Of a stretch of 64,000 nt of DNA, positions 3,248-63,970 are shown one piece after another (positions within the stretch are counted from its first letter, which is position 1; every line of letters starts with the position of its first letter). A program made the translations under genes and the position numbers. The stretch spans positions 62,001-126,000 of the forward strand of contig JAFCMP010000028.1 of NCBI GenBank assembly GCA_017506865.1, written 5' to 3'. This stretch comes from Tribonema minus. Lineage: Eukaryota > Sar > Xanthophyceae > Tribonematales > Tribonemataceae. The notes beneath the pieces were generated by a model. That model was not told the origin of the DNA and made no database searches. It saw nothing but the letters and a program-made list of their open reading frames with translations.

Positions 3248-6235
3248 ATGGTGAGTGCGAGCGGTGTCAGAAAGCTTGTGGCTACATAGTGGTCATATCT
3301 GCAGCAGGCAGGGGGCGGCGGGGTGGCGGATGAGGGCGGTGTTGGTTGAGTTGACAAATTGCTGGTGCCATGGACAAGGCTAGCTAGCGGAGCCGCTGGA
3401 GGCATTGGCAGCGTTAGCGAAGCCGAGAGAGCTGGAGAAGGTTGCCATACTGGCGATCTGGCGATGGCTGGGTGGGGACAGAGGGCGTGCCGAGTGGCAC
3501 TCTGCTGCACTGGCGGAGCAGCATTCGGCTGTCGCGGACGGAGCAACAGCAGTGACTGCAAGCATATGCATGCGATTAGTCCTTAATTGGTGGTTACCTC
3601 GGCCGTGCTTTCATGGCGTCGCTCATGGTAATGCTGCTAGTTGTAATTCTTTGAAACTAGTCATGGAGCGCGCAGCAGTGCAGAAAGCCCTCTTTGTCGC
3701 ATCTCGGTAGTGTTAGCCTGCAGCAGTCCCTCGACAGTTTTATTGATTTCCACTGGTCAGTGATTTGGCATTAATCACAATTTTGTGCATGGCGTGCGCA
3801 GGTGTCGCTGAAGCTTCAGAAGCGCCTTGCGGCGTCTGTGCTGAAGTGCGGCAAGCGCAAGATCTGGCTGGACCCCAATGAGGTCAACGAGATCTCGCTG
3901 GCAAACTCCCGCCAGAACATCCGCAAGGTCGGTCCTTCTAATTGTGCTGTGTCATCACGTACTCCTTCTTCACGTCTTCACCGCTCTGACACTTTTGCAT
4001 GTTATAGCCGCGAGGGTGTCCAATGCGTTTTTCTCATGAACACAATGTCGTCAACAGGTTGACCAGCGGGTCCTGTGATGCAGGACGTGCATGGCATCAT
4101 GTGTGTCCTGGAACATGGGCCAATGCATAACAGTGCTCGTGCTGCATATCTACATACCTGCAGGTCCTGTGATTTCAGAGCAACTGTGTGCTCACATGAA
4201 GCAGGCACACCTGGCTCTGCTGTTAGGGCCCAGCTTGCGCCAGTTGCCGCCTCTATGATGCAGTGACTCAGGAGGAGACATGTTGGTGCCCTTGGCAGCT
4301 GCAAGTATCAGGCAGCTGCGTCCTCTTGTTCAAGTGTTGAAGTTCAAAGTTCATGACCGATCCAGAGTTACATTACCTGGGGTGCACTTGCGGCTACGGC
4401 GCATAGCAGCTGGAATTCGCACATCTGCATTGCGTGCAATGCCACGAGCTCCTGATGTGTTTACCATATGCACCCTATGCTGACACCACACAATATGTAA
4501 CGTACAATGAGCTCATGATGGTGCCAGCTTTGTCCTGTGCACCAATCAACGCATCATCACATGTGTTCACGGGCCTGACCCCGCACCCCCCCCCCCTCCC
4601 TGCCCAATCATCGCCGCAACTAAGAAAGGATGGCCTGACCATCAAGAAGCCCGCGGTGATCCACTCGCGCGCGTGCGTGCACTAATCAAAGCATTGTCAG
4701 ATGTTCGAAAACCTGACCTCACAGCCCCCCCTTGCCCAATCACCTCTCTGCAGCTGAAAAAGGATGGCCTGATCATCAAGAAGCCCACGGTGATCCACTC
4801 GCGCGCGCGCGTGCTGGCTCGCAACGAGGCCAAGCGCAAGGGACGCCACACCGGCCCCGGAAAGAGGCACGGAACCGCCAACGCGCGCCTGCCCTTCAAG
4901 CTGCTCTGGATGAGGCGCATGCGCGTGCTGCGCAGGATGCTCCGCAAAGTGAGTACTCAGAGTCTCAGTCACATCGAGTCTCAGTCTCACTCTCAGTTCG
5001 TAATGTCCGAGTCTCACTCTCAGTTGGTCTGGATGAGGTTAATGCGCGTCTCGCGTAGACCGCTCCACAGAGTGAGATACAGTCTCAGTCTCTCAGTTGA
5101 TTGAGGTGCGAGCAGGTAGCACGCACAGCATGCTTTGCAAAGTGACTCAGAGTCGCAGTCTCAATCACAGCAGTCGTGACTGCAGCTGCAGTGCTGGCGG
5201 TGCACAAGCCGCAATTGCAGGCGCTACAGCACCTCGTTTTTAGGGGCATTGCACAACGGACTGGGGTTTTTGCACTGACGAAGTTGTGGTAGGGTTAGGG
5301 TTGGGTAGGGTCATCTATCGCAGGCGCGCATTTCACACACGCTGGACCGCACATGCCATGATCGCATTTGCGGGTTGCGGCACAACAGCAAATGCCCTGA
5401 CTTTCGGCTGCTGCCATGTTGACTGTCTCTGCACAGCTACTCTGGTGGGTCAGAGCGCGCGTGTATACTGTGCAGGATGCTCTGCAAATTAGTCGTGTTC
5501 CTGGTGATTCTTAGCCAATGGTGGTTCTCAGCCCCATAACCATTGCGTTGTTGCGAGCTCTGAGATTCTCTGAGTTGTAGTGAGGTTTGGGGGCCAAGAT
5601 TTGGCGCTCTGTGCGAATATGGCGAGCTACGTGATGTGATGCTCAGCGAGGTAATGTTACTTCTGAAATGCAATTCTGCAGTGGTATCAACAAGTCACAG
5701 TGGCTATGCGAGGGGTGAGGCACATGCACATGCATCATGCGGCTTACAAGGGCTACTCTTAGGGTTATGGTTAGGTGGCTAATCCTAGATCCCCTGCCGC
5801 TCCCGTGAACACCACGATCCATCTGCGAATGTGTGCTTTGAAATAGCCTGTAGCTCAGCATCAAACCTCTCGTCAGGGATTGCATTGGGTGTCCTTCCAA
5901 CCCTAGACTTGACAAAATCAGTGCCTTGTGGCAAAGTGGCGCTTTGGGAGTCGGTGCTCACATCCCCCCTGTTCCCCCTTTCCCCCCTGCAGTACCGCGA
6001 CGCCAAGAAGGTGGACAAGCACCTGTACCACAAGCTCTACATGCTGTGCAAGGGTAACCAGTTCAAGAACAAGCGCGTGCTCATGGAGGCGATCCACAAG
6101 ATGAAGGCGGAGACGCTTCGCGAGCGCGCGCTCGTTGAGCAGGCCGAGGCCCGCAAGGCCAAGGCAAGCGCTAAGAAGGACAGGAAGGCCAAGAAGGCAG
6201 AGGAGGCTGCCGCCGCTGCTCAGCCCGAGGCATGA
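3248..6235 (+). CDS. RPL19: 60S ribosomal protein eL19
   Basis: This is ribosomal protein eL19 of the large cytosolic subunit, 188 aa in four exons: 3248-3250 (only the ATG, followed by GTGAGT), 3802-3927, 4754-4948 and 5993-6235. All junctions are phase 0 and the total is 567 nt. Exon 2 encodes [17 protein letters not shown], nearly the plant sequence. Exon 3 carries the eL19 core, including [35 protein letters not shown] and [11 protein letters not shown]. Exon 4 encodes [28 protein letters not shown] and a Lys/Ala-rich alpha-helical tail ending AAAAQPEA. The length is normal for the family. A start exon that ends exactly at ATG is common in ribosomal protein genes and explains why the ORF appears to begin with GTG. 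The exon 2 donor (AAG|GTCGGT) is weaker than the others. Introns 2 and 3 hold decayed copies of exon 3. Confidence 0.95.
4543..4812 (+). repeat. tandem duplication of the eL19 exon-3 acceptor region
   Basis: Two adjacent diverged units of about 135 bp lie at about 4543-4681 and 4682-4812. Each has the order AATCA..GC, TGTTC, CCTGAC, a C-run, TGCCCAATCA, then exon-3 sequence reading KDGLxIKKPxVIHSRA. The downstream unit is the working exon with CTGCAG before it. In the upstream copy the acceptor AG has become AAC, so it should not be spliced. Confidence 0.85.
4905..5500 (+). repeat. decaying copies of the eL19 exon-3 donor in intron 3
   Basis: The end of exon 3 with its donor (CTCCGCAAA|GTGAGTACTC, followed by AGTCTCAGTC runs) is repeated downstream with increasing damage: about 5026-5098 (TGGATGAGG..CGTCTCGCGTAGACCGCTCCACAGAGTGAGA), about 5115-5172 (CATGCTTTGCAAAGTGACTC) and about 5462-5497 (CTGTGCAGGATGCTCTGCAAATT). 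Each copy keeps the exon-to-intron order. Confidence 0.75.
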
Positions 6236-9802: not shown

Positions 9803-12800
9803 AACCCCGCTGGCAGGGGCGGCGGACGCGGCCGCGGAATGGTTCTGCCCGCATGGATGACCAAGGACCCCGCAGCGGCAGGTGCAGCAGCGGCTCAGTC
9901 GCCTGCGGGGATAATAGGGGGGCTGCAGGCGGAGCGCAGGCCTCCACCGCTAGCTGCGCCGCCTATGATGGGGAGACCGGCCGCGGCAACGCAGCAGCAG
10001 CAGCAGCAGATGGGGGTGCCAGGGCGCATGCCGCCGCAGCTTGGGATGCCGCTGCAGGCGCCGCCGATGCTGCAGCACCACCACCTAGGTGAGCAGTGCA
10101 TCTAGGGCTAGTGTATTTAGGGCTTGTGTATCTAGGGCTAGTGTATCTAGGGCTACGGTTTGTCTCGTGTGGGTGGCTCGAGGTGATGCGGGCGCCGCCG
10201 ATGCTGTAGCACCATCACCTAGGTGAGCATTGCATCTAGGGCTAGTGTATCGAGGGCTAGGTTTTGTCTTGTGTGGGTGGCTTGAGGTGATGCAGGCGCC
10301 GCCAATGCTGCAGCACCACCACCTAGGTGAGCAATAGCTAGGGCTAGGGATTGGTAGTGTGGAGGTGCCTATGCTGCAGCACCATCACTTCGGTGAGCAG
10401 TGCCTAGGGCTAGGGTTTGTCTAGGGATTGTAGTGTGGAGGTGGCCCGAGGTGATGGGGGTCTGTGTTTTTACAGCGTGCAGGCGTCATGTGTGGTCTGG
10501 TGTTAAGGGGGGGGTGTACCCCAACCCCAAACTAGGTTTAGGATAAGGCTAACAAGCGGGCGTGACATGCTTGTAAGCGCAGGTTGCGCAGTGTGTGGGC
10601 ACACTCTACTGTTTAAGTCGTGGTACCTGAACATGAGAGTGGTGCTCCGTGAAGTCTTATTCAACTTGCTGTACCTGAACGTGGCGGCGGTAGTTCGGTG
10701 AAGTCTACTTCAACTTGCGGTGTTTGAACCTGAACAGTGTTCAGTGCAAGGGCCTCACATGCTGAGTGCTAGGCAGCTGCCGGTGGGGGTTAGGTTTAGG
10801 GTTGGTGTTAGTTGCCTCGCTGGTTTCGCAGCACCTTCCAAGTGACTGGCATCAGTTACAGCTTTCGTACCTGTTACAAAAACAAGGGATAGCCCGCCAG
10901 GCTCGGTGCAAGCATAATACACTATACGAGTTATGTCTCATTGGGTGCTTGCATCTCGTTGGATGGCATGCCGTTAAAGGGGCACCGCTGCCAGCCCCAG
11001 CATGTTACATCATAGATGTAGTTGTCAATTGTGTAACAGCCATTCCGCTCACTGGCTTCTGGCTTGCCGCATTTTCACATGCGCTTGCCCCCTGGCAGCC
11101 CCCCTGCGTCTTTATGTCATATCCTCAGAGCGGTGTGTGTCATATCCTCAGTGGTGTGTGACAATGTCGTGCTGCAGCTGCTCAGGTGCCGCCTGATGTA
11201 ATACCTACGGTACTCGCATGGGAGAGCGTTCGAGCTCTACTTCAACTTGAAGTATAGGCAGACGCGCCCCTTCCACTCCTTCTGCAGTGCTGTGCCTGGC
11301 ACACCTCACACCCAACCCTAACCCTACAGTTTTACACACAAACATAAACATACAATGCTGATATGCTACCATTCCATGCTGCTGCTGCTGCTGCCGCTGC
11401 TGCTGCTGCTGCTGCTGCCACTGCTTCTGCCACTGGTAATAGGGGCGCCACCGATGCTGGTGCCGCCTGGGAGGCCCCCTGCTTTTGCCATGCCCCCCGG
11501 TGTAGGCATGCCGCAGGTGCTTCGCGCCCCCCCAATGGTTCCCGCAGGGCTACCTGTGCCCCCTGCTATGCAGCCGGCACCGGTGACGTGTGATTGGTCG
11601 GAGCACAAGGCCCCTGACGGCAGGTCATACTACTACAACAAGGTAATGTCAACTTCAACAAAATGTTGCGAGGTAGTGACGTAATTTTGAGAAGCACAAC
11701 ACGCTGAAGGGCATGTGGTGTTCTGCTACTGCATCTTGCGGTACTACTGTACACACGACACTTTACTTGTCAACAGCGTCGTTGATGTTATGTAAAGTGC
11801 TTTCAGGTATGCACAAGCGCACTGCGCGCCACATGGATGCTCAATGCCGCATGCAGTTTCAGTTGCCCATCAAGTGCATGACCAACTCAACTCCAACTTC
11901 AAACCCAGAACTTAACATATGCGATTTGAAACCCCCTTTTGCTGCGCGGCACAGGCAACTTCACTTCTCGCCACTTTCTTCACCCCCTGAACTTAAACTT
12001 CCCAACCCTCACCCTTCTCATGCCCACCCTCCCCCTTCCCCCTACCCCTTACACATCAGGTCACCAAGGTCTCCACCTATGACCGCCCCGCTGCCCTGGG
12101 GCCCCCGAAGACCACCGTTGTCGTCGTACAGAAGCCCCTCACCGCCGCCCCCTACGCCGCAACCTCCGCCGCCGCCGCTGGCGCCGCCGCCGCAGCAGCA
12201 TCCTCCGCCGCTGCCGCTGCCGCCGCTGCGGCCTCGCCCGCACTGACCGCGGCGTCGCCTGCAGGAGGAGGCACCCCGTCGAAGGCGGTTTCGCCTGCTG
12301 TAACTGCCGTAACTGCCGGTGGGACGCCGCTCACCGCCACTCCGCTCGGCGCTGCTGCGGCGTCGCCCGCGCCTACTGCGACTCCGTCCGCTGCTGCCGC
12401 TGCGTCGCCTGTGCCTGCGGCGGCGGCGGCGCCGGCGGTGGAGCTTGTTCTGCAGAAGGTTCCTGTGGTGCCGCCGTGCAAGTGGAAGGAGTACGACCAC
12501 AATGGCAAGAAGTACTACTCGGATGGCAAGACGAGTCTGTGGGAGAAGCCCGCGGAGATGAAGGCGCATGAGGTATGTATGTATGTGTGGAACGATGGGG
12601 CAAGCAGCGCTCAGCAAATCTTTTGCTACTATGTAGTAGTGAACTGCTGACTATCATACAGAGTGTAGGAACAGCTCTTAGCATACACTTAGTGACGTTT
12701 CCTTTCTTGTCGTTGCATGGAGTGTAGGAGTTCTTGACTGGGCTGAAAGCTGGTTAGGTCCTTACACTGCTGCGATTTCAACCGGTGGCGTTTTTGCATA

Positions 12801-15800
12801 CTATGTGACCAAGTGCATGCAGGCAAGACAGGACTGGGGTGGCCTTCTCATAGTTTATTCTGGTTGCTTACCGTATCATCCAGCAGTCGGAGCGTCGGAG
12901 CCGCTGTCGCCATTCAGTGCTGTTTGCAATTGCCACCCACTGCGCTCATTGAGACACGAATTGCGTTCAATCTCAAAATCTGCACGTGTGACTAGAGACA
13001 TGCTCGAATAGTTTTTGTTTATCAGGCTGCCTGCCTTTACTGTAGCGATGACTGCACCGTGCATCTGCACACAGATACTGAGGGGCATGCATGGTCTTTG
13101 TTGCAATGCGTGCATGCAGGCGGCAAAAGCGGAGGCAAAGCGTATCGAAGAAGAGAATGCCAAGGTGAGGCTGGCAGTTAGTTGACTTGTCCTCTCGTCT
13201 TCAGCTTTGAAGTTTACTGGGCAGCGCCTATGCCATTCTGTTTACCTCTCTACTGTTTGGGTTGCGCTTACACTAGGCTGGGGTATTGACGAGCTCAATG
13301 ATAACTTGAGCTCTTGAGATGAGTTCGTTCGATACAGGATGCGCTCACAATTGAGGTGGGGAATCTGCACTGCTTTGTACTGTAACTCTGTACTGTAACT
13401 CGTACTTCAACTCTAACTTTGCGCCGCCCAGGCCATGCAAGCTGATGCAGAACGCACATCGCAAGCGTGGTGAACTCTGTTGTACAGCACCTGTACCGGC
13501 TGTGTACCAAGTATTGACGGAAGTCTGCACGAATTTGTGCACAGCACATCGAAGCTGAAACACAGCGAGTGACAAAAGCTGAGGCCAAGGCCAAGGTATT
13601 GCCCTCTGTTGTACTGCACACATGCACATGCACTATTGTATTTTGACAGAAGTGTGCTCTTGTGTGTGCGCAATACAGGCGGTGGAAGCCGAAGCGAAGC
13701 GAGCAGCGGAAGCTGAGGCCAAGGCCAAGGCTGATGCGGAGGCAGCAAATGTGGCGGCGGCAGCATCTGCCGCTGCCGCCGCTCGGAAGGCCGCGGCAGA
13801 TGAGGAAGAGGAGGAGAGACAGGTGCAAAATTTTATTCACGAATTCATGTTGTTTGTTAATTCACTGTTCAGCATCAGCCGCCGCCGTCGCTTGGAAGGC
13901 TGCAGCAGATGAGGAAGAGGAGGAGAGACAGGTGCAACTGATTCATGAAGTCATGTTGTTCGTTATATCGTTGTGGTGGCACCAGCGGCCGCTGTTGTCG
14001 CTCACAAGACTGCGGCGGATGATGAAAAGCAAGTCCAGTTCTTGTTTTTCTGTTGACAAGAAATTGATCAGTCCATCGCCCACGAAAGTGGGGTACACGA
14101 ATCACCTTCATTAACAGGCCCCGGCGGGGAACGCGTGGCTCTTTGTGTTGGTGTCCACCAAGCTTTGCTACTTGTCGATAGTCATCGGCGTTGCATGAAC
14201 GCATTTGCAAGTGTTCACTTTCGTGAAAAGGCCAGGGCGCGCAAGGCGCGGCGCCCCACAGTGAAGTGAACATATTTTCTTCCCATTCATGAAATTCACA
14301 TGTTGCTCGTGAATGTTCATGTTCATGAACAGGCCAAGGCACGAAAGGCGCGGCACCCCACAGTGAAGTGAACATATTTTCTTCCCATTCATGTAATTCA
14401 CATGTTGCTTGTTCATGAACAGGCCAAGGCACGCAAGGCGCGGCGCCCCACAGTGATCGACATAGCGGAGTACAAGACGTTCAAGCAGAAGAAGGAAGCC
14501 TTCATGTCACTGCTAGCAGATGAGGAGGTAACCTCTGGCACCAAGTGGGCCGACATTGAAAAGGCCTGCGCTGAGGTGCGTTCACAACTTCAAAGCCAAC
14601 TTCAAGCACAAAGACCAGATGATGATGAACAGGCACAAGTGGGCCAACTTGAGAACGCCTAAGTGCTGGCGTGTGTGCTTGACTGAAACTTCAAAGTCAG
14701 CTTACATGAGTCATGTCAGAACCCCAGGTACCCACCCCTGGTTTTTTTCTTTCTTTCTTGCCAAGCGTTGGTGAGAAATGTGTCATTTCACGCTTGAACG
14801 TCATGTGCGTGCTGATCATCGTGCATGCATGATTAGCACCGCGTTCATGATTGAATTCATGCGACACCTGAATGAATTCATCCGACACCTGGCCTTGTTG
14901 CGGCCCTACAGGGAGAACGGCAGTACACACACACACTGGCACCGAGCACCAGAATCATGGTCATGGATGGATGTGTTGATGCGATGGCAGTACAGGGTCT
15001 GCAATGGCTAGTCTTGGCTGCCTTCGAGACTGGAGAGCGTCTAGACCCCTCCGAGTAAACAACACCAGTGGTCGCTTCTCAAGTAGTTTCACTGGGAAAA
15101 CCCTCTTTGCTGTTACTCTCTTTGGTAATGGTGAACATCCGGCTGCCAAAGAGTACCAGAAACAGAATTCCAGGACAGTGTTTATAAATGAATGCACCAG
15201 AAAACCCTCTTTACCAAGGCTGCACAGGACTTATGCTGGGCGGGTCTCAAGAAGGGAGTACAGCGCCAGACCGCTAACTGATTCATGCGCGAACGCACGC
15301 TCATAAACGCATTCATGAGTGAATAAATTCATTTGAAACTGGCGCACAACAGCGTTGTTCATTCATTTGGAAACTCTCTGTGCACAGGACCCGCGCTGGC
15401 TGGTGCTCAAGAAGGGAGAACGGCGCCAGACCGCCACTGAGTACCAGAACATGAGGCGTAAGGAGGAGGCAAAAGAAGAGCGAGCGCGTGCTAAGAAGGC
15501 CAAGGATGCATTCTTGAAGATGCTTGCCACCAACTTCAGCATCGACGGTAAGCAAATGCAGCGTTCTGGATGGTACAATGCCTTGCGAGTGAGAAACGGG
15601 TCGACCATGCCCTTAGGCTGTTGATGAAGGCTGTCAAAATATTCTCGAAGGTCCTCGCCACCAACTCCAGCATTGACGCTAAGCACGCGGCATCATTGAA
15701 TTGCAGTGCCCAGCCAGTACATCAGCCAAGACCTACCTGTTGCAGCGCTCAATCGCCGACCCTATACCTACCTGCTGTGAGTGCGGCAGTGCTCAGCTAG

Positions 15801-18800
15801 GTGCGCCACACCGGCCAAGCACACCTTGTTGTTCTAGCTCGCCGCCAACCTCAATGTTGATGTTGAGTGCTTTGGATCGGCACTTTTTTAGAGCCACGGT
15901 CTCCATCACGATTTGATGTGCTTGTGAGTCTTACTGCAGTGCTCAAATCTTTTCTCCTGCGCACCAAAAACAAGCGTCGCTGCAAGCAACACGCAGTTTT
16001 CTTTGCATTGGAAAACACATGGCTTACCTGTCATTATTGTTGTCGCGCATTTTGAGCTCTTTCTCAGGCAACACGCGTTGGACAGAGGCGAAGGACCTGC
16101 TCGCCTCAGACATCCGCTTTCAGAACGTGCAGGACGACAGAATCCGTGAGGAGATCTTCATGGAGTTCACAGAGGAGCTCAGGAAGAGGGACAGGTGTGT
16201 GTCTTCTGTGTAGTTCAAATTTGAATCACAGTTGGGTGTGTTGTGTTTGATGTACTTCAATAGAGTGAAGTATGCACGTGTGTAGTTTACGGGTAGGCAT
16301 GCATGGTGACAGGATCTCTCAATGGAGCTAGTCGAAGAGCTCGGAGGAAGCAGGCATGGTAACATTGGTGCACAAAGTTGAAATGTCGCCCACCTGCACT
16401 CGCTGCATGCACTTCTTGAAGTGTAAATGGTTGTGGTAGGAGTGTACTCAACACCGTGCGATCCGGTCCGCTGATCCATCACAGTTTAGCGGCGCTGAGA
16501 TGAGAGGACCCCACTGCCGCATCCCAAGAACTTGAAGTCTCTGCTCTTGGGCTCAACAGCTGCACCTGCTCCAAATCAGGGCCTCTGCTTGCTGGGCAGC
16601 ACGAGTTTGCCAAGCCGCAGCGCTTGGTTGATGCTGAAACCAAAGGCAGCAGTGTCTCCTGGCAATTAATTTATCACTGCCTCTTGCAGCATCGAGGCAC
16701 CGTCATCATCGTCATCACCATGTACGCTGACGCTCGCTAGCTGCCAATCCTGACCCATTTCACGAAGAGGAGTCAAAGTGGTTAGGGTTAGGGGGGTTCA
16801 GTTTAACGGGTAGGGGGAGGCATGGCAATTTCGTCATTATCATTATTCGTGATGATGGCTCACTGCTTACCTCAACCCTACTGCAGGGAGGAGGAGTCAA
16901 AGCGCCGCAAGCAGGCACTGGCGTCATGCAGCAATAACTTCACATTGACTGACACTGTTATGGCATTGCCATCATTTGGCACTTGCGGCTAAGCATCCCT
17001 TGTCATCTAAAGCTCTACGATCTTTTGATTCGTTGTCATTTATCACCACTTGTGCTGACGATGGTTCGCTGCTTATTTTAACACAACTGCAGGGAGGAGG
17101 AGTCAAAGCGACGCAAGCAGGCTCTGGCGGCATACGCGGAACTTGTGGCAGGTGCCAACCAGGCTGGCCTAAACATCACCCACACCACCAAGTGGAGCGA
17201 GGTGTCCATGGCATTGGCGGACATGGCTGCTCCTGACCCACTCCTATCAGGTACGTATGTATATACGGACTGCACTTGAACTTGAAGTTTAGAAGTAGAA
17301 GTACGTAGTACGTAATGTAGACCCCCTTGTCATTCAATTTGCGGGCGGACATGGCGGCTCCTGACCCACTCCTATCAGGGTTGTACGTATAGTGTAACTT
17401 TACTTCTCTACGTACGAAATGACGGCCTGACCCATTCCCATCAAGTGTGTTTGTGTAACACTATGTTGTTTTTGTATATATACTTTGTAGTATGGCACTG
17501 GTGGACAAAGTCGGGTCCTGACCCACTCCCTCGGATGTATACCATGTACCTCACCTTGCATTTCCGATTGTCACCACCGTGAATTAGTGATAACGGAGAC
17601 AGAGAAGCGTCGCATCTTCAACTTCCTCCAACCCAACTTCAACTTTTTCCCCAATCACTGCGAAACAGTCATCACAGAAACGGAAAAGCGCGGCATCTTC
17701 CAGGAGCACGTCACCAAGCTGCTGAGCGAAGAGGAAGAGAAGCGCGTCAGGGAGCGAGAGGAGAGGCGCAGGGAGGATGCGCGCAATCGCAAGGCGTTTG
17801 AGGCGTTCCTCCGCGCGAAGCTCGATGCGGGCGGTATCACCGCTGACACCAAGTGGAAGGACCTGCGCGCGGTGAGTTGAAGTTATGACACGTGTGTTGG
17901 TGAAGTTCACATTGTGGATGCTGCGTGTAGTCCCTCTTTTGAAGAGGCGCAGGGAGACATGCGTGCGATCGCAAGGCCTTCGAGGCATCTTTCTGCGCTA
18001 AGCTCGATGCGGGCGGCATCACTGCTGACACCAAGTGGAAGGACCTGCGCGCGGTTAGTTGAAGTGAGGGCAGCACGAGCACGAATACGAGGCCATGCCA
18101 CCCCACCAGTCAGCGCGTATCATTGATGTTTCTTCTTGGTGTACGATTTCATCTTTAATTGATACTATATACTGCTGACGTAGTCTACCCAACCGCCATT
18201 CTCCCGTGCAGGAAATTGAACATGAGCCTGAATATAAACAAGGCCATGAGAGGCAGGGCTCCACCAATCGGCGCGTATCGTTGATGTTTCTACTTGTCAT
18301 ATATGTTCTTGTCTTTATTCAATACTATCTCTCGCTCACCGAGTCTACCCCATTTCCATTTTAAAATTTTCCCATGCAGGAAATTGAACACGAGCCTGAA
18401 TACGAGGCCATGGAGAGGCAGGGTCCCACCAGCCAGCGCGACGTATTTGACGTCATTGTGGATGAGCTTAGGCGGCAGTTTCGCGATGACAGGCGACTCA
18501 TGGAGGATCTCGCGCGCGAGGCCAAGTTTGCAGTCACGCCAGAGACCACGCAGGATCAGTTCATGGTGAGATCACATTTTTTCTGGTGTTGGTTACCATA
18601 CAAATGCGTATCCAACACAGACCGTACTAAAGGGACCTTGCATAGTCTATTGCTCTTGGCCAGAGACCACGCAGGAGCTGTTCACGGTGAGGCAACTGTT
18701 TTTCTCATGTTGGATAACATCCCATTACATACCAGCAGGATCAGTTCGTGGCAAGACAACTGTTTGCCTGGTGTTGGGTAACGTAATAATACGTACTAAC

Positions 18801-21800
18801 ACAGACCGTAACCATAGGGGCCTTGTGTAGTCTGTCCCTCTGGTGCAATTGTACACGTTGCCGCAGCCCTGTGAAACATAGATGTAAACGACAGTACATT
18901 GCTCCTGCAAGCCTGCCACATGGCACCTGTTCACTGCTTGCAGCCAGTTGCCATACAACCATATAACCAACCCTCAGCATTTGCATATGTTGAGTGTATC
19001 CGGTGACTGACCATACATGACATGCCACAAATTTTCATGTGTTTGATGTTCTTCGTGCAACTGAGTTCTGGTGACGCAATCCCCTCACCGCAGGACATTC
19101 TTGTGGCGACAGAGTGGAAGCTGATCTGCGACAAGCACCCGCGCCTCAAGGCACTGGAGGAAGCGCACCGCGAAAAACTCCAGGCCAGAGAGGCTGCCAA
19201 AGCGGAGGCGGGCATTGAAAACGGCGACGCTGCGGAGAATGGAGATGAGAATGGGGAGAATGGGGATAGCGAATATGAGGTTGCCATGCGTGACGCGCCG
19301 GCGCGACGCATGCAGGAGATGGCCACGAAGCGGCGCGTCAACGTGGAGCTCACCTTCAAGGCGCTCATGGAGAGGGCCATCGTGGCGAGGTGCGTCACAC
19401 TTGAAGATATATATACAACAGTTTGCATTACCCTAGGCGCATTCGCTAGGCGCGTCACATGTCAAGTTGCGCGTGAATGTGGAGTTGACAAGGCTCATGG
19501 AGAGGGCCATCGTGGCCAGGTGCGTTGCGTCATACTTGAAGTTACATGTGAAGTTTTGCTGGGCGCTTTACATTTGAAGTTGTATGTAAACAAGGAGCTG
19601 ACGTACAAGGCGCTCATAGAGCAGGCTGTCATCGCCTGGTGCGTCACACTTGAAGTATACTCCAGTTAAGGGGTCGGCTGCCACTCCGCTTCTTTCTGCG
19701 CAGTTTCTCCTGTGCAGGACAGAGCACAAGGGTGCAAGCGCGTGCGTCTGCAATGTGTGCTTTGGGACGGCAAGTCACACGCCTTCAAATTTCAAATCTA
19801 GCATTTAGTTCACATTGGCGCGCTCCTCATGCCTCCTTTGCAGGAAGGAGCAAGAGCGCAAGCGTGCACGCCTTGAAAAAGACTTCAGGGAGCTGCTGCT
19901 GGAGTGCTTCTACCGCAGCGACCACGTAACTGCCACCTGGGAAACGGCGCGCACCAAACTGCAGAAGCGGGGTCCCACAGGTATGTATGTATGCAATATG
20001 CTGTCTTGTTGCCTGCTTTCGTAGTGATGGCAGGCATGTGATGCATGGTGCAGATGGTGGGCAGTTGAGCACTGCAACACAGGTGCTGTGGAGCGCTGCT
20101 GCTGAGTGCTTACGTCACCTACAGTGGGGTGTAGCCAACTGCTGCAGTGGCCCCACACATGTGCGCCAGCTACAGGACTGTTTATGCAAATACGACGATC
20201 GTTGGTCAACGCATGCAGCGAACTGCAGCAGCAGGGTCCTAATCGCATATGGCAGCGAACCTCTTGGTGAACACAGTGATCTTTGGCCTGTGCAGTAGTT
20301 AAGATGATGTGGGTTAGAGGTTGGGTTGAGGTCAGGACTAGGCTATCTATCATCCTAAGCACGTGTGAATGTGCTTGTCTAGGAAACACACAGCGCGCGT
20401 GGTGTTGGCATTCTCGAGTGCGCTTTAGTTGACATTCCCATCTAGCGTTTGCCCTTCCACTCAGTGTTTGCTGGTCACAGCGCACTGTTTCAGTGACACT
20501 ATGCACCGTGGATTGGCACCTCAACAGTGCACTGGGTGCGCATGAATCATATCCGGCTTGTCACATTTGAAGATGGGATGGAGCGTCACATGCCCTTGCA
20601 CTTGATGTTTGATGGATGCAGGTGTGCTGGAACTTCCTGAGGATGCTCAGCAGGTTCTGTTTGAAGAACACATGATCAAGCTCAGGGAGGCCATGGCAGA
20701 GAGGGTAAGTGTGTTGCCACTTGTATGATGGGAAAAAACACTGTTTGATGCTTGAGAGCAAAGTGATCATTGTGGTACTTAATTATGTTGCCATGTGTAT
20801 GATGAGAAGAAAAAAACACTTTGTCGCTGCTTGAGAGTTAGTCATTGATGTGGTATTTCAGATGCACATGTGCAGATGCACCCTGCGAAGCACGGGGAGG
20901 CCAAATGTTGTCGTTAGTGTGGTAAGATTGTGTGTTTGTTTGCGTGTTGCGTGTGTTTGGTCAGTGTGTTGACTGCAGCTCCAGCCGCTAACCATGATAT
21001 TCATCAAGCGAGTTTTCCTATCGCTGCAGCTGACGGTCGCAGCCTTGCGCCCAGGTGCGCATTGTTGTGACGCTCATTTCCTGTCACAAGACTGATAGTT
21101 GCCACCTCCACCAGTGCACTGCGGCTGCTGCATACTGCGGTGGCAGTTCAGGCAGGAGTTAGTGTTAAGGGTTTAAGTGCAGCAGGGTATTGCGGAAATC
21201 AATGCGGAGCGCGACGCAAGGCGCGTCACTGTTTGAAGTATGTTGCCCCCCCCTACCTCAGCATGTTTGCAATGACGGCAAGTGATAACTGTTTAAAGTG
21301 TGTTGCCCCCCCCCCCCCCCCCCCCCCCCATCTTAGTACAGTACAGTACAGCATGCATGCAATGGCGTAACTGATGATGACCCCCTGCCACTGCGTCTCA
21401 GGCGGAGAGGCAGGAGAAGCTCAAGGCAGAGCGTGAGGCGAGGCGAGAGGCAGCCAAGGTAGCAGCCAGGGAGGATGGGGAGCTTGCCGCTGCAGAGGAT
21501 GAGAAGCGAGCACAAGAAGGTCAGACACATGAACCAACACACGGCAGTGATGATTTAAATGACAAACCTAATCAGTTCCGAGCGCATGCTGTGAGGGGAG
21601 ACAATGATCATAAGGACCTCACAGGTCGGCAACGTATAAGCTGCTGCAGAGCGGAAGAGTGTGTCATCTGGTGGCAGAGGACAGAATAGTGCACAAGTAG
21701 GTCAGAAAGAGAACCACCATGTGTCTTCCAACATGGCAATTCGAAATATTCAATGATGCCATGATGATCATGTACTCCATCTAGTCTAAGGCCAGGAAAA

Positions 21801-43664: not shown

Positions 43665-46600
43665 TCAAGGAAGGATCCTCTGCAAACGGTTCCAGAGGTT
43701 CCCCGAGGACTGTGCCTGGGACGAAGAACTATCCGCAGCAGCCGCCAGCGCCTCCTGAGGAACCTTCTTCAGAGGGGTCATGCGGCCATTCGGTGCAACC
43801 GGTGCAGAGGCCCCTGCAATGGTGGATTTCGGGAACTCGTAGAGGCTGTAGATGTTCTTGTACTTGCGGATCTCTGTGCGAAAGTCAATCTTCAAGTCCT
43901 TAAGCAGGCCGCTGCCGATGTCGTAGACCCAGCCGTGGATGCGAGGTTGAGCATCCGTGGCCTGCGGCAGCGCTCAAAACCACCAAGGGCCACCTTGTCA
44001 ACACCTATGTTGAAGTTGATGTTTTCGTACAGACACTTGATAATGATGCTGAATGAGACACTACAGTGTGAGTGACTCCATATACAGAGAGATGGAACTT
44101 GTTTTCTTCAGCACTTCAATACATATATTGCAGTCCGGGAGTTGCATGTGTGCCCAAAAACGTGCCACTATGGTGCGCTTTGGGAGGGCTCATCACATGT
44201 GTGCCTCTTGACAGGGAATGATTGCAAAGCTATTCATATTGCATGCCATTGTATAACACTGACGCGTGCGCTGAGGTCATGCTCTGAGAGTTGGTCACAT
44301 CAGTACCACAAGATCAGCAGAGTCACTGATGTCCAAGAATTATGTACGGAGTATGCTTGGAGCCCAACTTTGACTTCTCATGATACATACCTCCAAGCAT
44401 TACTGTTATGCTGCACAACAACCACATGGCATGGTATGCGTTGGGGCGATAAAAAGTGTGCAGGTCCTGCAGGTCAAAATCGACTATGCACTGGTGACAT
44501 TCCTCTGTTGAAGTGCACAAAGTTGAAGTACGTGCAACCGTGTGCACATTGGGGCCAGTAATACTCGAGCTGCTTTGCTGGATGGACTCTACTTAAGTGC
44601 TTTGAAACTCTGGCGCGTATACAGAGGTGCAGGACGTGTGCGACCATGATGAGGCCATCATTGCCGAGTGCGCAGAGAATGCGCGCAGGGAGCGCACGCA
44701 CTCCTAGCGGCGAACGTGTGCCGTTTTCCCGTCCTGTTGCCGCCCGGGCCGCCTTGCCTTCAGCAATGGCGCCGGCCGCTGCCCACTGCTCAGCGGCGAC
44801 TGTGACACGCCTCAGCGCGCGGTTTCTTCGCCTTGTTGGATTGTTGTGTTTTTTTGCCCGCCGAACTCATGCGCCCGGCCCACTGGGGCGCACTACAATC
44901 CAACAATCCGACAAGGCGGCCCGGGCGGCAAGAGGATGGAAAAAACAGCACACCTTTGCCGCTAGAAGCGCGTCCGCTCCCTGCGCGCATACTCTGCATA
45001 TTCGACAATTATGGCCTCATCATGGTCGCACAAGTCCTGCAAAGGACCACCAAGCGCAACAATCCACTTAAGCGTTGCTCCTCATTGCGCACGTAACTTG
45101 AACTTCTGAATTAGTGCTTTGAATCTCCTCAATTTTCTTCAGCACAACAAGACTGCGCCACAGGTTGGCACAAATCCTCATTGTGAACTTCAACAACATG
45201 CTCTTTTCTTGTCTATGTGCTTCTGTATGTAGCTGCGCACTAATTGCAGTTATGGCTAATTGAGTCAAACGCATCCATCGGACTGCCACTGCACTTGAAG
45301 TATGCCGCACCTGCTTCTTCTGCACGACAGGGTTGGCAAACAGGTTCATGCAGGCCTCTTGAACATTAAGTTCAACTAGGCGCTGGTGACGCTCCTCTTC
45401 ATTGGGAATCTCCGCGAGCTCTGCCTGGTGCAACCGCTGCACGTTGCGGATGTGCATGAGCCAGTGCTCAAGCAGACCTGCAGAGAGTAACAGCAGTGAA
45501 GTAAGGGTGTCAGATAAATCATTGTTGAAAATCCAGATCTACACAAGTGTATGGGGTATCATGTACAATGCATGAGCCAGTGCTCAAGCAAACCTGGAGC
45601 ACAGAACAGCAATCAAGATGTCACAGTTTATGTACTGTATATATGCAGGGGTCTGAGGTACAGCAGTTTGAAGCATTGTCATAGATGTAGACTACTATAG
45701 AGGTGATATGTATGTATGTGCACGAGCCAGTGCTTGAGCAAACCTGCAGCACCAAACAGCAGTCAAATGAGGGTCTCAGGAAAACCATCGTTGAAAATCC
45801 CCATCAATGTACTCTACTATAGGGGATATCATGTAGAATTATGCGCATCAGCCAGAGCTCCAGCCCTGCAGCTAGTACCGGCAGTCAAAGAAATTCTAGA
45901 AGTTGGGCTCTCATGTGTGCTCCAGCAGCCCTGTTGCGAGTGATGGCAGTCAAAAGATCATACTACAGGTGCGATCAGCGACCATGCAGGTATGCTAATC
46001 ACCAAGTACCACAACCAAACATGGTTGAGGGTTGTCAACGTGTAAGTGGGATGAGAGCTTACACCTTACCTTCACCCCATGCCCAGGCAGAGCTCATATT
46101 GCTTTCATCACTCTTCTTCTTTCGATCAGTGCACTCAACAATATTCTCTTCTCAAAAAGCGGCCGCTCGCTACTCAAAAGTGAGGCACAACGCAACGATG
46201 CATCTGGGGCCTCGCACAGATTTTCAGCTTACTTGAACTCCAACTGTGACTTTCACCATGACCGTCCTATGCAACTGTGGTAGTGCGTCTTTGAAAAAAC
46301 AGCAGCCACCCAGCTTGCTATTAGTTTCTCTCGTGTCTGTGCTTTTGTGCATGACCTTAGTGTGTGACCTATTGAAAACATACAAGCGAAGACTCTACTG
46401 TTCAGAATTATGTATACATACCAGCGCCAGCATCCTCACTGGAGGGATATATATACATGGAAGAACATGAAGCTGCTGCTTCCATATTTTAGCCTTTACA
46501 TTTGCCATTTAGCACTTGTTCTACTTACACAGCGACACTACACAGTGCGGAGGGCTCACCATAACCCTAGCACTTACGTTGTGTGAGGGGAAGTTTGACA

Positions 46601-49165
46601 ACGGCAATCGTGTTCTATCCGCGCCGTCTATATACATGGGACCCTCAATTGATGCTCGACTTCGTTGTCCAGGGCATGTGGTCATGGCACCATACCGTGG
46701 CTTCCAAGTGACACCAAAGAGCCATTGTAGGAACGTCTGTTGACTGGTCATTTGCACCAGCACATTTGCAAGAGCATGTCATCTAAAATGCCGTTCATTG
46801 CCTGCTTTACCATGTTCGCCCCGCACTTGTTCTGAGTTCACAGTGTGTTCACTTAGTACGCTGTTAAAAAGCTCACCGTGGTCCTTGTTCTCCATAGCAG
46901 CCCTCACTCCACCGCAGCCATAGTGTCCGCACACAATGATGTCCGTCACCTACAATAGAATGAAATGAGTGGAGCTCATGAATGAACTGATAGACGAACA
47001 GGTTAGACTAGCCAACAATGGAAGAAAAACTACTCAATTGATGCACATGCAGAGTACTACATTTACAAAATCATGTCCATCACCTGGACTGAAATGAATG
47101 AATACATGCATTAAAAGTCAGAAATAGACAGAGAAAGGAAAACATTGGCAATAATCAGGTGTGTCATTTGTGTGAACGCGCCGAGCAACGGGCAGAAAGC
47201 AGCCGGACACACATCCCAGAATCTAATACCCATGGTAAGCATCTAATACCCATTGTAAGATGAAGATACACAAGTACACACATCTGCAGCTCCGACCATT
47301 AAACGTGCAACATATTGATGCTGCGCGTGCTGGCTGCCAGTGCCACACCAAGAGCAACCACAAGCCCGCGCTCCAACGCCGTTGCCACGACTCCAACCGC
47401 CGTTGCCGCGACGGCGCGTCACCTGCCCAGCTACCCGTTGCTGGGCCCTTGCAATGGCAATCGCATTCGGACCTGCCGATGAATGGCTGGACCATCATCA
47501 GCAGTGACACTTGGTAAAAAAATGCCGTCTCTATTTTCATGCCGCCCTCGGTAAACTCAGTCGGCCTGAAGAGGCGCACGATGGTACAGACCATGTAGAG
47601 TACATCAATCAGGCCTCGGGTAAACTTGCAAATAGCATTGCCAAATACATTCATTGAGAAGCTCCACTACGCGTGTATACTATATTCAAGTGAAGTTTGT
47701 GCCTCAAGAACCTCCACCGCGTACGTGAGCACTGACAGCAGCGAAAAGTCCGTGTTGACGCAGAGGTTGGCCACGTTGCAGATATTAAGGTAAAGTGCGT
47801 ACCTCAAGAACCTCCACTGCGTACGTGAGCACTGACAGCAGCGAGTAGTCCGTGTTGACGCAGAGGTTGGCCACGTTGCGGTGCACAAACAGCTCTCCCG
47901 TCGTCAGCCCAAGCATGTTCTGAGCGGGCACGCGGCTGTCGCTGCAGCCGATGTACAGGTACTTGGGTGCCTGTGAGAGTTACACGGAAAAAGGCATGGC
48001 ATTTGGCATCAATGCGATGCACGCTTGTTGTTTGTCAATTACAGAACTCAAATAGTGCTAGGCAAGCATTTAACGTTTGATGCACGTCGTACGACACGTG
48101 GTTTGAGGCATGCAACGCAGGGCTTCATTCGCACTGGGATGAAAAACAGGTTCAGGGGTGTTGGATCATAATAATGTGACGCTGGCCGAGGCATGAATCA
48201 GTTGCGGACCGAAGTGATGTTGGCACGGAGTGGCATGGGGAACTGCAGGAGACAGCAGCGATGGTAGTGAACTTAGGCAGTAGAGCGGGTTCAATGGAGG
48301 TGCAATTGTGGCTCTTGCTAGTAGCCCAAACGCCTTGATGATATTGCCACTGTTGACTACTGCAACTTGCTCGTGACGCGTCATGAAAAAGATGCTGACA
48401 CGGAAGCCCGGGCAGTCGAAAGGTGCAGTTGTTCTGTAACCGATTGCGGTCCTCATAGTTCCGAAATGCATCTGACAGTACAGTCTGCATGAATTTTTAT
48501 GTAGTTCACTAAAGGCGGCTGTGTCTCAACTCACGCACTGCCATGTTGAACATGCTCCTTGACATCAACATGCTGTAACACATCACAAAAGCCAATGAAA
48601 GGGTGACAGCAGCAGCGGATTGAGCTGCTGATCGCATGTGGATCAGCTGCTACTGCAGTCACTGCACTGCAACTGCTGCATTGCTCTGCCGCCGATGCCC
48701 TCAGCTGACGTGTTGACGCCCTCGACCCAACAAACGAGCGCAGACACATGAACAGCACACGTTTCAGCTATTACCTCCGGATTATAGTCAGAGGGTGCTC
48801 AAGTTGCTACCGTTACTGCTGAATATATATAACCAAAACGACTGCTACTGGTTGCGGTGGCGCACCTGTGCGTACTTCAGCCTTGTGAAAATTTCAGGAT
48901 CCTCCTCCAAGCAGTCTTGCACCCAGCGCTTGTTGCTGTCGAATATGTAGTCAAGGTTTTCCGCCGTGTCCCAGATGCTCTTCGCTCGCTCGTACGGGCT
49001 CCTGTTGCCCATTCTTAGTGCGCTGGAGGATCTTTGTCGCTGCGGTTGCTGCAGAGTGGGTCGCCAGCTAAGGCTCTTGCATACTGGCCCATTACTGGGG
49101 ACGAACGCTGCAGCGACTGCAGCTGACGCCAATAACAGCAGCAGAGACCTGTTAACTTGGGCCAT
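43665..49165 (-). CDS. beta-carbonic anhydrase with plastid-type bipartite leader
   Basis: It interconverts CO2 and bicarbonate and probably serves inorganic-carbon supply to the plastid. Five exons on the minus strand agree in phase: 49165-48866, 47970-47803, 46949-46877, 45477-45311 and 43961-43665, giving 334 aa. The N-terminus ([25 protein letters not shown]) is a signal peptide followed by Phe at the expected cleavage site. A Ser/Gln/Arg-rich stretch to about residue 52 follows. This is the two-part leader used for complex plastids; a secreted form is an alternative. The catalytic residues are present: Cys109, Asp111 and Arg113 in GCSDSRV, and His165 and Cys168 in CGHYGCGGV. Other family blocks are [37 protein letters not shown] and [18 protein letters not shown] Ser/Ala/Gln-rich tail extends beyond the usual end. 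Confidence 0.94.
44628..45041. repeat. foldback inverted repeat in carbonic anhydrase intron 4
   Basis: The left arm 44628-44756 pairs with the reverse complement of 45041-44912 (for example TGTGCGACCATGATGAGGCC, GCGCGCAGGGAGCG, GCCGCCCGGGCCGCCTTG). The right arm continues into GTCGGATTGTTG, which matches 44829-44846 on the left, so the left arm carries an insertion of about 72 bp (44757-44828). Each arm starts TGCAGGAC and its first 80 nt are open in one frame ([20 protein letters not shown]), which looks like captured exon sequence. The arms are about 85% alike. Confidence 0.88.
45435..45895 (-). repeat. acceptor-side copies of carbonic anhydrase exon 4
   Basis: On the minus strand the exon start is CTGCAG|GTCTGCTTGAGCACTGGC, then TCATGCAC. 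Copies lie upstream in intron 3 (higher coordinates) at about 45568-45610, 45717-45775 and 45840-45895. On the plus strand they read ATGAGCCAGTGCTCAAGCA or a variant followed by AACAGCAGTCAAATGAGGG or AACAGCAATCAAGATG. They grow more diverged with distance. Intron words such as TATAGGGGATATCATGTA repeat with them. Confidence 0.85.
47690..47885 (-). repeat. donor-side copy of carbonic anhydrase exon 2
   Basis: The last 75 or so nt of exon 2 (plus-strand text CTCAAGAACCTCCACTGCGT, ACGTGAGCACTGACAGCAGC) are repeated at about 47702-47780 with few changes. The copy encodes [20 protein letters not shown] where the exon has NTDYSLLSV. At its end the donor is GC instead of GT. The word GCAGATATTAAGG at 47778-47790 marks the join. 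Confidence 0.92.
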
Positions 49166-49295
49166 GACGCGGTATAAGTGTCCCGTCTAGCCAAACTGGC
49201 TGTAGTGATGATGTTCCACAATTTAGAGGGCGACGCTCCAGGCCTGCACTGTGAACTCTGTGTGGACTGTACACTTGAACTTTGCGATCTTGGCC
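49166..49295. promoter_or_regulatory. short divergent spacer between carbonic anhydrase and the ANGCPW-repeat gene
   Basis: Only 130 bp separate the carbonic anhydrase ATG (49165, minus) from the first in-frame ATG of the plus-strand repeat gene (49296; another is at 49320). If both are transcribed, they share a promoter region. A TTATAC word sits about 12 bp before the carbonic anhydrase start, too close to serve as a TATA box for that ATG. No other element is clear. Confidence 0.35.
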
Positions 49296-55000: not shown

Positions 55001-55520
55001 GCTGCTACCCATTCCGCTGCCGCCAGGACGAACACCATGTTGAAGGCATTCTTGAGGTCCAGCATGAACTGCCAGTGACCGAGCTCTTACGCGAGTTTGC
55101 CGGCCATGGCCGCTTTCTCCGCTCCTGCTGAGACGGCTACCCCATACTGCCCGTCTGGCTCAAGGAGCTCCGCCAGAAAGTCTTTGCGGTCTGCCACGTA
55201 CACCGAAGTGCATAGTCGCTACAGCACCTCGCCGCAAACGATGGGCCGCTGCTTAGCTGTACCATCTTCCTGTTGTTCTGCAAGTGGCGTCAGGCGCCCC
55301 GCGCCATGCAACTGCCAGAAGGCATCCGGCAGCCGCGCAGCCTCCCGCATAACGGTCTGAAGCCACCGTGTGAGGACAGCAGCAAACTCATGCCGTCCCC
55401 AGCTTGTGCGTAGCGCATCCTGCAGGTGGCTGTAGCGCAGCCCCGATGGGCCTGCTCCACTGTAAGGGCTTGCTCGCTGGATGAGCTTGGCAACCGTCTC
55501 TGGCTCAATTCCCTCCCCCT
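52093..55520 (-). pseudogene. reverse transcriptase, RT domain and C-terminal half of the retroelement protein
   Basis: The RT motifs are visible in order: upstream block GPSGLRYSHLQDAL with RLTPLAEQQ and RPIVCGEVL; motif A LDLKNAFN (about 55062-55039); motif B RGFKQGDPAAP (about 54897-54860); motif C YMDD (about 54774-54763). A thumb-like region with LPTRHGGLGI follows. A stretch of about 270 residues, nearly all Ala, Thr, Pro and Gly (about 54040-53250), interrupts the distance to a C-terminal domain holding RSQRHMHSIGMAF, QTAGCKLCGKSPGGTLHARLC (C..C..H...C) and MDIVLPADAFPV. Two stops lie upstream of motif A in the same frame (55221-55219 and 55089-55087). The rest, 990 codons from 55065, is open. 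Confidence 0.88.
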
Positions 55521-62951: not shown

Positions 62952-63031
62952 AGGCTACCAGACTTCACAAAGCCATGTGTTGTTTGAAAACTTGAAGAGA
63001 TGGGCCTGATCCCGTCCTGCCGCTACATGTG

Positions 63032-63062
63032 TGTGTGTGTGCGTGTGTGTGTGTGTGTGTGA
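63032..63062. repeat. (GT)n microsatellite
   Basis: A run of GT dinucleotides with one GC interruption. It is non-coding. Confidence 0.95.
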
Positions 63063-63464: not shown

Positions 63465-63808
63465 CTACTGAGCATCACCAGCGCCATGCACTGTGCTGCG
63501 CACTGCCACACACCGCACACCTAGCATCACTTGCTGCTGAACCTTCCCCCGTGGCACAAGCATATACCGTCAGAACTATGCTGCACTTGTCACACACTGC
63601 CCACCAGCAGCACGAGTCACTGACACTCCTCCTGAACACACGCTCTTGTACGAGGCGCATGCGCGACACATCCAACATGAACTTCAACAGGAGAACTTCA
63701 AGGGGTGCTGAGCATCACCTGCATCATGCGCTGCGCGCACGCCTTCTGCACGCGGTGCATCATCATGAACTTCAACAGCAAAAACTTCAAGGGGAAGCTG
63801 AGCATCAC
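63465..63808 (-). repeat. donor-side copies of the KH-domain exon
   Basis: The end of the KH exon with its donor (plus-strand text GAGCATCAC|CTGCATCATGCGCTGCG, CGCACGCC) is repeated at about 63705-63789 with the same GAACTTCAA(C/A) flank, and in more decayed form at about 63471-63510 (GAGCATCACCAGCGCCATGC). On the minus strand these copies lie downstream of the exon in the following intron. Confidence 0.88.
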
Positions 63809-63970
63809 CTGCATCATGCGCTGCGCGCACGCCTCCTGCACGCGATGCATCATCATGTACTGCGCCGCGTGCGCCGCCGCTGCGCTGCCGGTGATGGTGA
63901 CCACCCTATCTGTGGTGCCCGGCAGCGCGTTGCCTCTGCGGCTGACGCTGATGCGCGCGCCGGTGATCAT
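63809..63970 (-). CDS. KH-domain RNA-binding protein, single exon, gene runs off the window
   Basis: A 162-nt exon in phase 0 lies between an acceptor (CGCACGCAG|ATG) and a donor (ATGCAG|GTGATG). It reads [40 protein letters not shown] and [14 protein letters not shown]. This is the second half of a type I KH domain: the strand ARISVS, variable loop, RVVTITG strand and C-terminal helix, most like poly(C)-binding or Nova-type proteins. The GxxG loop and first helices must lie in the preceding exon beyond the window. KH proteins bind single-stranded RNA in splicing, stability or translation control. Confidence 0.85.

What the first reader, a model, noticed from the sequence alone, without database searches (positions are those of the whole stretch)
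3248..63970. Genome-wide tandem duplication of exon-intron junctions, about thirty copies in five genes
In eL19, the PRP40-like gene, the F-box gene, carbonic anhydrase and the KH gene, the introns next to many exons contain one to four diverging copies of that exon's own edge together with adjoining intron sequence. Acceptor copies lie upstream of the exon and donor copies downstream, so each is a tandem duplication spanning one splice junction. Copies range from nearly identical (37757-37850) to barely visible (17514-17540), which suggests a continuing process. It lengthens introns, creates decoy splice sites and could feed alternative splicing. I know of tandem intron gain by exon-internal duplication, but not of a genome where junctions are copied this regularly.
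Basis: seen in the sequence. Interest (0 to 1): 0.9.

Follow-up and report, generated by a model that had tools for sequence, protein, structure and literature searches.

The report
Introns studded with copied exon edges
In this alga-like genome many introns hold decaying head-to-tail copies of the end of the neighbouring exon together with its splice site, so introns seem to grow by repeated small DNA duplications laid across exon-intron borders.

Summary
The window holds 36 exon-edge copies at 22 junctions, and 10 of 13 sampled gene loci on other contigs carry such copies. Of 179 edges tested, 63 have a direct copy in their own intron and none an inverted one. In 28 introns with exons fixed by homology or hand, 25 of 28 arrays span a junction, 9.4 expected. 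Simulated uniform duplication gives 14-30% junction arrays; 49 of 67 were seen. A held-out family was weaker: 4 of 7 spanning, 3.4 expected; all 7 touch or lie within 15 bp of a junction (rule chosen afterwards). Copies decay without frame constraint (0 of 28 gaps a multiple of three) and lose GT/AG at about the background rate. Best reading: small tandem duplications recur at exon-intron borders, are spliced out and lengthen introns; why borders are targeted is unknown. The nearest named eL19 relative is the yellow-green alga Tribonema minus. No RNA evidence was available.

The parts
4754..4948 (+). eL19 exon 3; both edges are copied into the flanking introns
   Evidence: frame hand-checked; Pfam Ribosomal_L19e; edges 4725-4814 and 4899-4970
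4593..4682 (+). acceptor-edge copy upstream of eL19 exon 3; acceptor AG now AA
   Evidence: 87% identity
5022..5484 (+). three donor-edge copies downstream of eL19 exon 3 (5022-5093, 5123-5166, and a short one at 5457-5484)
   Evidence: 74%, 80%, 81%
10187..10443 (+). three donor-edge copies downstream of PRP40-like exon ending at 10088
   Evidence: edge 10053-10111
13514..13601 (+). acceptor-edge copy of exon starting 13679 (gene finder only)
   Evidence: 72%
13870..13968 (+). donor-edge copy of exon ending 13822 (gene finder only)
   Evidence: 86%
14220..14354 (+). two acceptor-edge copies of PRP40-like exon starting 14423, 102-bp unit
   Evidence: 86% and 91%
15221..15274 (+). acceptor-edge copy of exon starting 15388
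   Evidence: 81%
15641..15685 (+). donor-edge copy of exon ending 15547; GT now CT
   Evidence: 84%
16850..16927 (+). acceptor-edge copy of exon starting 17093
   Evidence: 86%
17344..17529 (+). three donor-edge copies of exon ending 17250; the last (17492-17529) is faint and stops short of the junction
   Evidence: 90% and 78%, 82%
17575..17619 (+). acceptor-edge copy of exon starting 17669
   Evidence: 73%
17943..18064 (+). donor-edge copy (110 exonic bp) of exon ending 17871
   Evidence: 88%
18198..18272 (+). acceptor-edge copy of exon starting 18380
   Evidence: 82%
18659..18811 (+). two donor-edge copies of exon ending 18565
   Evidence: 81% and 78%
19469..19660 (+). two donor-edge copies of exon ending 19389
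   Evidence: 78% and 79%
21674..21721 (+). donor-edge copy of exon ending 21519 (gene finder only)
   Evidence: 79%
22383..22668 (+). two donor-edge copies of exon ending 22314 (gene finder only)
   Evidence: 94% and 78%
35040..35196 (+). two acceptor-edge copies of exon starting 35265 (gene finder only)
   Evidence: 88% and 72%
37755..38038 (+). three donor-edge copies of exon ending 37673 (gene finder only)
   Evidence: 94%, 84%, 81%
39349..39704 (+). three donor-edge copies of exon ending 39273, in the F-box/Cyclin_D1_bind gene
   Evidence: 74%, 82%, 78%; domain
45569..45800 (-). two acceptor-edge copies of carbonic anhydrase exon whose 5' edge is at 45477
   Evidence: 86% and 80%; Pro_CA
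47682..47779 (-). donor-edge copy of carbonic anhydrase exon 47803-47970; GT now GC, 100-bp unit
   Evidence: 91%
63468..63771 (-). two donor-edge copies of the KH exon whose donor is at 63808 (63671-63771 and a short one at 63468-63496)
   Evidence: 91% and 83%; KH_1

Best explanation
Short head-to-tail DNA duplications (62 of 67 arrays have a period below 300 bp, median 142) arise again and again at exon-intron borders. The unit holds 16-110 bp of exon edge (20-65 bp in 49 of 60 junctions; under 15 bp could not be seen) and in 54 of 60 at least 45 bp of adjoining intron. The exon-proximal copy goes on serving as exon and splice site; the extra copy is removed with the intron and decays, so the intron grows by one unit per event and fills with decoy exon edges. 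SHOWN: anatomy, direct orientation, correct side, excess at junctions in the introns tested, loss of reading frame in copies, neutral-like loss of GT/AG. INFERRED: that the outermost splice site is the one used; that the mutations come from local break repair or slippage, such as fill-in of staggered breaks; that borders are mutational hotspots and not selected sites; that this explains the long introns.
For: Introns with fixed exons: 25 of 28 arrays junction-spanning, 9.4+-2.4 expected; with the held-out family, 32 of 35 arrays touch or lie within 15 bp of a junction, 14.7+-2.8 expected, 0 of 500 simulations. Uniform-duplication simulations predict 14-30% junction arrays, observed 49 of 67. 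63 of 179 edges copied directly, 0 inverted; exon middles gave only two 14-bp matches in 33 probes. Periods; exon and intron parts. Unit intron part under 45 bp: acceptors 2 of 31 (11.8 expected), donors 4 of 29 (12.0 expected), as if the working splice site must keep its own intron context. Gap lengths in copies: 0 of 28 multiples of three. GT/AG kept in 44 of 60 copies, 65-66% predicted from flanking intron identity and 79% from exon identity. Exon halves more similar than intron halves, 0.879 vs 0.809 in 34 pairs, as expected if only the real exon is constrained. Small tandem duplications from fill-in at break ends are known (PMC8355091, abstract).
Against: Held-out TCP1 family: 4 of 7 arrays strictly span a junction, 3.4 expected, P=0.48. 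At 90% identity or more, 5 of 9, 3.3 expected. Intron-only probes: junction-adjacent 39 of 123 vs internal 47 of 276, odds ratio 2.3, not significant at 80% identity or more; flat intron-only profile. In 14 of 44 copies with exon identity of 0.90 or more no intron similarity is seen beyond 10 nt, which a plain tandem unit does not predict. Mismatches concentrate at codon position 3 (14.8% vs 8.3 and 6.1%); the real exon's own evolution may explain this, but constraint on copies is not excluded. I know of no process that targets exon-intron borders.
Confidence: 0.6

Rival explanations
1. Tandem duplications strike introns uniformly; junction-spanning ones merely stay visible longer because the real exon copy is conserved.
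For: Intron-only probes show only a 2.3-fold junction excess; intron-only coverage does not depend on distance to the junction; exon halves diverge more slowly; held-out split 4 spanning, 3 not; excess not significant at 90% identity or more.
Against: The simulation includes slower exon divergence and still predicts 14-30% junction arrays against 49 of 67; introns with fixed exons 25 of 28; at 85% identity or more 15 of 21 arrays span a junction, 7.7 expected.
Confidence: 0.15
2. The copies are kept by selection as decoy or alternative splice sites that regulate splicing or yield isoforms.
For: 80 of 101 crossing copies keep GT or AG; in-frame stops in 1 of 67 ungapped copies, 3.6 expected if 70% of changes are the copy's; third-position excess; 36 of 78 copies have a site score within 1 of the parent or above it.
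Against: GT/AG retention matches background decay; no gap is a multiple of three; stop deficit not significant, P=0.12; unit length is a multiple of three in 19 of 60; mean site scores are about 2 lower than the parents'.
Confidence: 0.15
3. Copies are templated insertions of exon edges (break repair copying nearby DNA, or RNA-templated), not tandem duplications.
For: 40 of 98 copies lack clear intron similarity beyond 10 nt of the junction, 14 of them with exon identity of 0.90 or more; some copies lie 600-1300 bp away (L023 acceptor 8511).
Against: 58 of 98 copies do carry adjoining intron; no inverted copies at 179 edges; copies sit on the correct side.
Confidence: 0.1
4. The copies belong to a dispersed repeat or intron-making (introner-like) family.
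For: None found.
Against: Each copy was found by its own exon edge; the one intron searched genome-wide finds only itself and its own exon edge.
Confidence: 0.02

Closest known systems
Junction-crossing tandem duplication in potato RdRp (Ma, Lan and Niu 2016, PMC4974935; abstract read)
   Same: One tandem duplication that crosses an intron-exon boundary, with splice signals inherited by the copy.
   Different: A single event that made a new intron; here dozens of events at both donors and acceptors lie inside existing introns.
Intron gain by tandem duplication of an AGGT-bearing exon segment (reviewed in PMC3443670; passages read)
   Same: Short tandem duplications that duplicate splice signals.
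   Different: There the duplicated segment is exonic and creates an intron; here exon interiors are not copied and the intron already exists.
Small tandem duplications from fill-in at DNA break ends (PMC8355091; abstract read)
   Same: Short head-to-tail duplications.
   Different: The abstract names no link to exon-intron borders; mechanism not tested here.
Introners (PMC9860276; search listing only)
   Same: Change introns across a genome.
   Different: Introners are copies of one element in many genes; these copies match their own exon.

Membership tests
Junction-crossing tandem genomic duplication | Direct head-to-tail copy of a segment spanning exon and intron | tested here: met
   63 direct, 0 inverted of 179 edges; intron part recognisable in 58 of 98 copies
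Junction-crossing tandem genomic duplication | Duplicated region spliced out as part of a new or longer intron | not testable with these tools
   no RNA data held for this organism
Intron gain by AGGT exon duplication | Duplicated unit is exon-internal | tested here: not met
   exon middles: two 14-bp matches, one inverted, in 33 probes
Introners | Sequence family shared between introns of different genes | tested here: not met
   only one intron searched genome-wide; it matches itself and its own exon edge
Mutually exclusive exon duplication | Whole exon with both splice sites copied | tested here: not met
   nearest crossing copies hold 16-110 exonic bp of one edge; one gene-finder exon in L022 (142 bp) comes near a whole-exon copy and is probably itself a copy
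Small tandem duplication by break fill-in | Dependence on a named repair pathway | not tested
   sequence alone cannot show it

The most novel reading that the evidence does not exclude
This lineage has a mutational or repair process aimed at exon-intron borders (or dependent on splicing or its chromatin), so that introns grow outward from their splice sites by repeated junction duplication while the spliceosome reliably ignores near-identical decoy sites. It could be a source of the long introns of this group of algae.
Probability: 0.4. Interest if true: 0.9.

Novelty: new variant of a known kind. Interest (0 to 1): 0.74.

Why it matters
Long introns are often put down to transposons (recalled). 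Here the neighbouring exon's own edge is a recurring source of new intron sequence, and each copy is time-stamped against a conserved exon. Comparing intron sequence alone, 18% of intron bases lie in detectable local duplications, against 0% of the window's intergenic stretch, 1.3% of a transposon-rich block and 2.7% of a virus-like block. Ectocarpus, a brown alga of the wider group (kinship recalled), also has long introns (median 524 bp, PMC12477816, passages), so the idea can be tested in published genomes. The copies are also many natural duplicated splice sites for asking how a spliceosome picks the right one.

Tried and rejected
My first guess of a volvocalean green alga (note), with two Haematococcus papers read in passages, was wrong: the eL19 search gave Tribonema minus and other stramenopiles first. 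A first gene finder chained whole blocks into single genes and was replaced by a two-strand one. Random block A (C223) proved virus-like and block B (C46) repeat-rich: each of two 1.2-kb probes matches about 40 other places, capped lists; both are weak controls. Pure detection bias, suggested, was set aside. A deficit of in-frame stops is not significant. Telomere-like repeats in introns are not tied to the arrays (7 overlaps, 6.4 expected). One search timed out and was redone in smaller form.

Rows dropped before counts: window exons at 44.6-45.0 kb and 49.2-62.7 kb (transposon and ankyrin region) were removed from the confident set; arrays needed 40 bits or more (36) and a period of 30-600 bp; copies with under 15 exonic bp were not counted; introns with fixed exons needed profile ends within -25 to +4 positions. 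The kinesin loci tested also trained the gene finder; the TCP1 loci did not.

Literature: searches (open-licence PubMed Central; listings of at most 20 rows, three of them partly on other questions) listed no paper on recurrent junction duplication across a genome.
Full report
WHAT WAS CHECKED. The window is bases 62001-126000 of contig C28 in a 158-Mb, 554-contig genome. The eL19 protein read from the window is closest, among named hits, to Tribonema minus (94% over 85% of the length), then Phaeothamnion and Chrysoparadoxa; the sequences differ, so this is a relative of yellow-green and brown algae, not T. minus itself. Pfam supports eL19, WW and FF domains, carbonic anhydrase and KH; the F-box gene is supported by a sub-threshold F-box-like match and a Cyclin_D1_bind domain over its cut-off.

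THE OBSERVATION. Self-alignment shows tens of local direct repeats in the intron-rich genes. For each confident exon edge I searched its own adjacent intron. Of 196 junctions in the window and nine kinesin loci, 67 have a hit and 60 have a copy that reaches the junction; 42 of those 60 junctions are hand-checked or homology-anchored. In the window alone there are 36 copies at 22 junctions. Edges are copied in direct orientation (63 of 179), never inverted (0 of 179); exon middles gave two 14-bp matches in 33 probes, one inverted; 23 of 165 probes hit on the wrong side, all 23 explained by the other edge of the same exon.

GENE MODELS. With no annotation I trained a small gene finder from hand-checked window exons. 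It recovers 36 of 43 kinesin exon matches located independently by profile search and 10 of 13 hand exons exactly; one hand exon had its end 2 bp off. One kinesin locus (L025) got no gene model and has no repeats; three of its four exon matches are clean and one holds 2 TGA stops, so it may or may not be a pseudogene.

BEYOND THE WINDOW. Nine of ten carry junction copies. Of three TCP1 loci fetched later, chosen for contiguous profile coverage, one (L033) does by the strict rule; I had already seen that the C5 gene shows an exon-end copy. In that table exon-edge copies appear as repeated matches to the same profile end: C51 21979, 22169 and 22346 (profile starts 52, 53, 51), C135 208409 and 208583 (starts 241, 242) and C5 353216 and 353558 (both ending at 224).

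IS IT MORE THAN RANDOM INTRON DUPLICATION? Evidence pulled both ways. Placement null over all confident exons: 49 of 67 arrays span a junction, 26.4+-3.8 expected; at 85% identity or more 15 of 21 (7.7), at 90% or more 5 of 9 (3.3). Probe test: 56 of 143 junction probes hit, 28 of 176 intron-internal, 6 of 400 in block A, 8 of 400 in block B, 0 of 319 with shuffled targets; at 85% identity or more 30 of 143 against 5 of 176. But exon copies are conserved on one side and stay visible longer; with intron sequence alone, junction-adjacent probes hit in 39 of 123 and internal probes in 47 of 276 (odds ratio 2.3, P=0.0015; P=0.09 at 80% identity or more), and coverage does not fall with distance from the junction. 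I therefore built a stricter test. In 28 introns flanked by exons that are contiguous in the family profile (19) or hand-checked (9), 25 of 28 arrays span a junction, 9.4+-2.4 expected, P=1.5e-9. A simulation of uniform duplication, with the exon copy evolving at 0.35 of the neutral rate and divergence uniform from 0 to 0.40 (both my assumptions), predicts 14-30% junction arrays among those detected. The flat intron-only profile is then explained, I think, by intron halves and multiple copies of junction arrays. Held out, with the gene finder frozen: 16 TCP1 introns, 7 arrays, 4 strictly spanning, 3.4 expected, P=0.48; this does not replicate the strict result, but all 7 touch or lie within 15 bp of a junction (4.0 expected, P=0.016; the distance rule was chosen). 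Together 32 of 35 arrays, 14.7+-2.8 expected.

ANATOMY OF THE UNIT. Nearest-copy period is 55-286 bp and the exonic part 16-110 bp. The intronic part is under 45 bp in 2 of 31 acceptors (11.8 expected) and 4 of 29 donors (12.0 expected). Acceptor units are more intronic than donor units (exon share P=0.007 over all; means 0.32 and 0.47 in the 21 and 22 junctions with long enough exons). That fits a need for the working acceptor to keep its own branch point and pyrimidine tract; the donor deficit has no such simple reason. Acceptors and donors are copied equally often (29 of 72 and 27 of 71 probes). Hand-checked or anchored junctions with copies have a larger exon-intron GC step (0.150, n=42, vs 0.083, n=58, P=0.0036), a lead for a mechanism.

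FATE OF THE COPIES. Gap lengths in 87 copies: 28 gaps, none a multiple of three. GT or AG kept in 44 of 60 copies with at least 20 aligned bases on both sides, where neighbouring identity predicts 65-66% (intron) to 79% (exon). Mismatches fall more on codon position 3 (14.8% vs 8.3% and 6.1%), which the real exon's own evolution can largely explain (my estimate). In-frame stops: 1 of 67, 3.6 expected, P=0.12; if all changes were the copy's, 5.1 expected, P=0.02. Together this looks like neutral decay, with some room for constraint. In 14 of 44 copies with exon identity of 0.90 or more, and 26 of 54 others, the intron half is not recognisable; later deletion, fast intron change or templated insertion could explain this.

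CONTRAST WITH OTHER DNA. With intron sequence alone, local duplications cover 18% of 72 kb of introns (38 of 87 introns), 0 of 60 pieces from window 24000-32400, 1.3% of pieces of block B (6 of 150) and 2.7% of block A (11 of 150). Of two 1.2-kb probes of the intergenic stretch, one is single copy apart from a nearby inverted partner and the other holds two short repeated stretches. Block B is repeat-rich and block A virus-like, so only the small intergenic stretch is a fair control.

MECHANISM. I commit to recurrent small tandem duplications at exon-intron borders, tolerated because the extra copy is spliced out. Fill-in at break ends is a known route to small tandem duplications (PMC8355091, abstract). 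What brings breaks or slippage to borders is not known; R-loop edges or the GC step are guesses. Use of the outermost splice site is inferred from intact reading frames.

KNOWN OR NEW. A junction-crossing duplication is known from potato RdRp (PMC4974935, abstract), and tandem duplication is an accepted route of intron gain (PMC3443670, passages). Nine searches of open-licence papers listed no report of it as a recurrent feature of a genome. Hence a new variant of a known kind.

Noticed in passing
introns of the window and L021-L030: Telomere-like 8-mers (TTAGGG type) occur at 2.44 per kb of intron against 0.06 shuffled, about 0.5 in intergenic and block B, 0 in exons and block A; 40 clusters in 25 of 87 introns, on both strands, not tied to the duplications.
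   Followed up: partly
L001-L010 (contig C223, 500001-600000): Gene-dense block of mostly long open frames with a Pox_A32-like packaging ATPase: looks like part of a giant-virus insertion in the alga's genome. Observed only.
   Followed up: partly
introns generally: The heptamer ACTTCAA is at 0.94 per kb in introns against 0.06 in exons.
   Followed up: no
window 26479-26840 and 27213-27554: Inverted repeat, about 350 bp per arm and 80% alike, in the intergenic stretch; no other copy found in the genome.
   Followed up: no
window 52093-55086 (-): Reverse-transcriptase reading frame of a retroelement.
   Followed up: no
window 49227-50945 (+): Ankyrin-repeat protein or relic with 81-bp coding repeats, interrupted by a stop near 50429.
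   Followed up: no
L025 (C101 kinesin locus): No gene model and no local repeats although four kinesin exon matches are found, one with stops.
   Followed up: no
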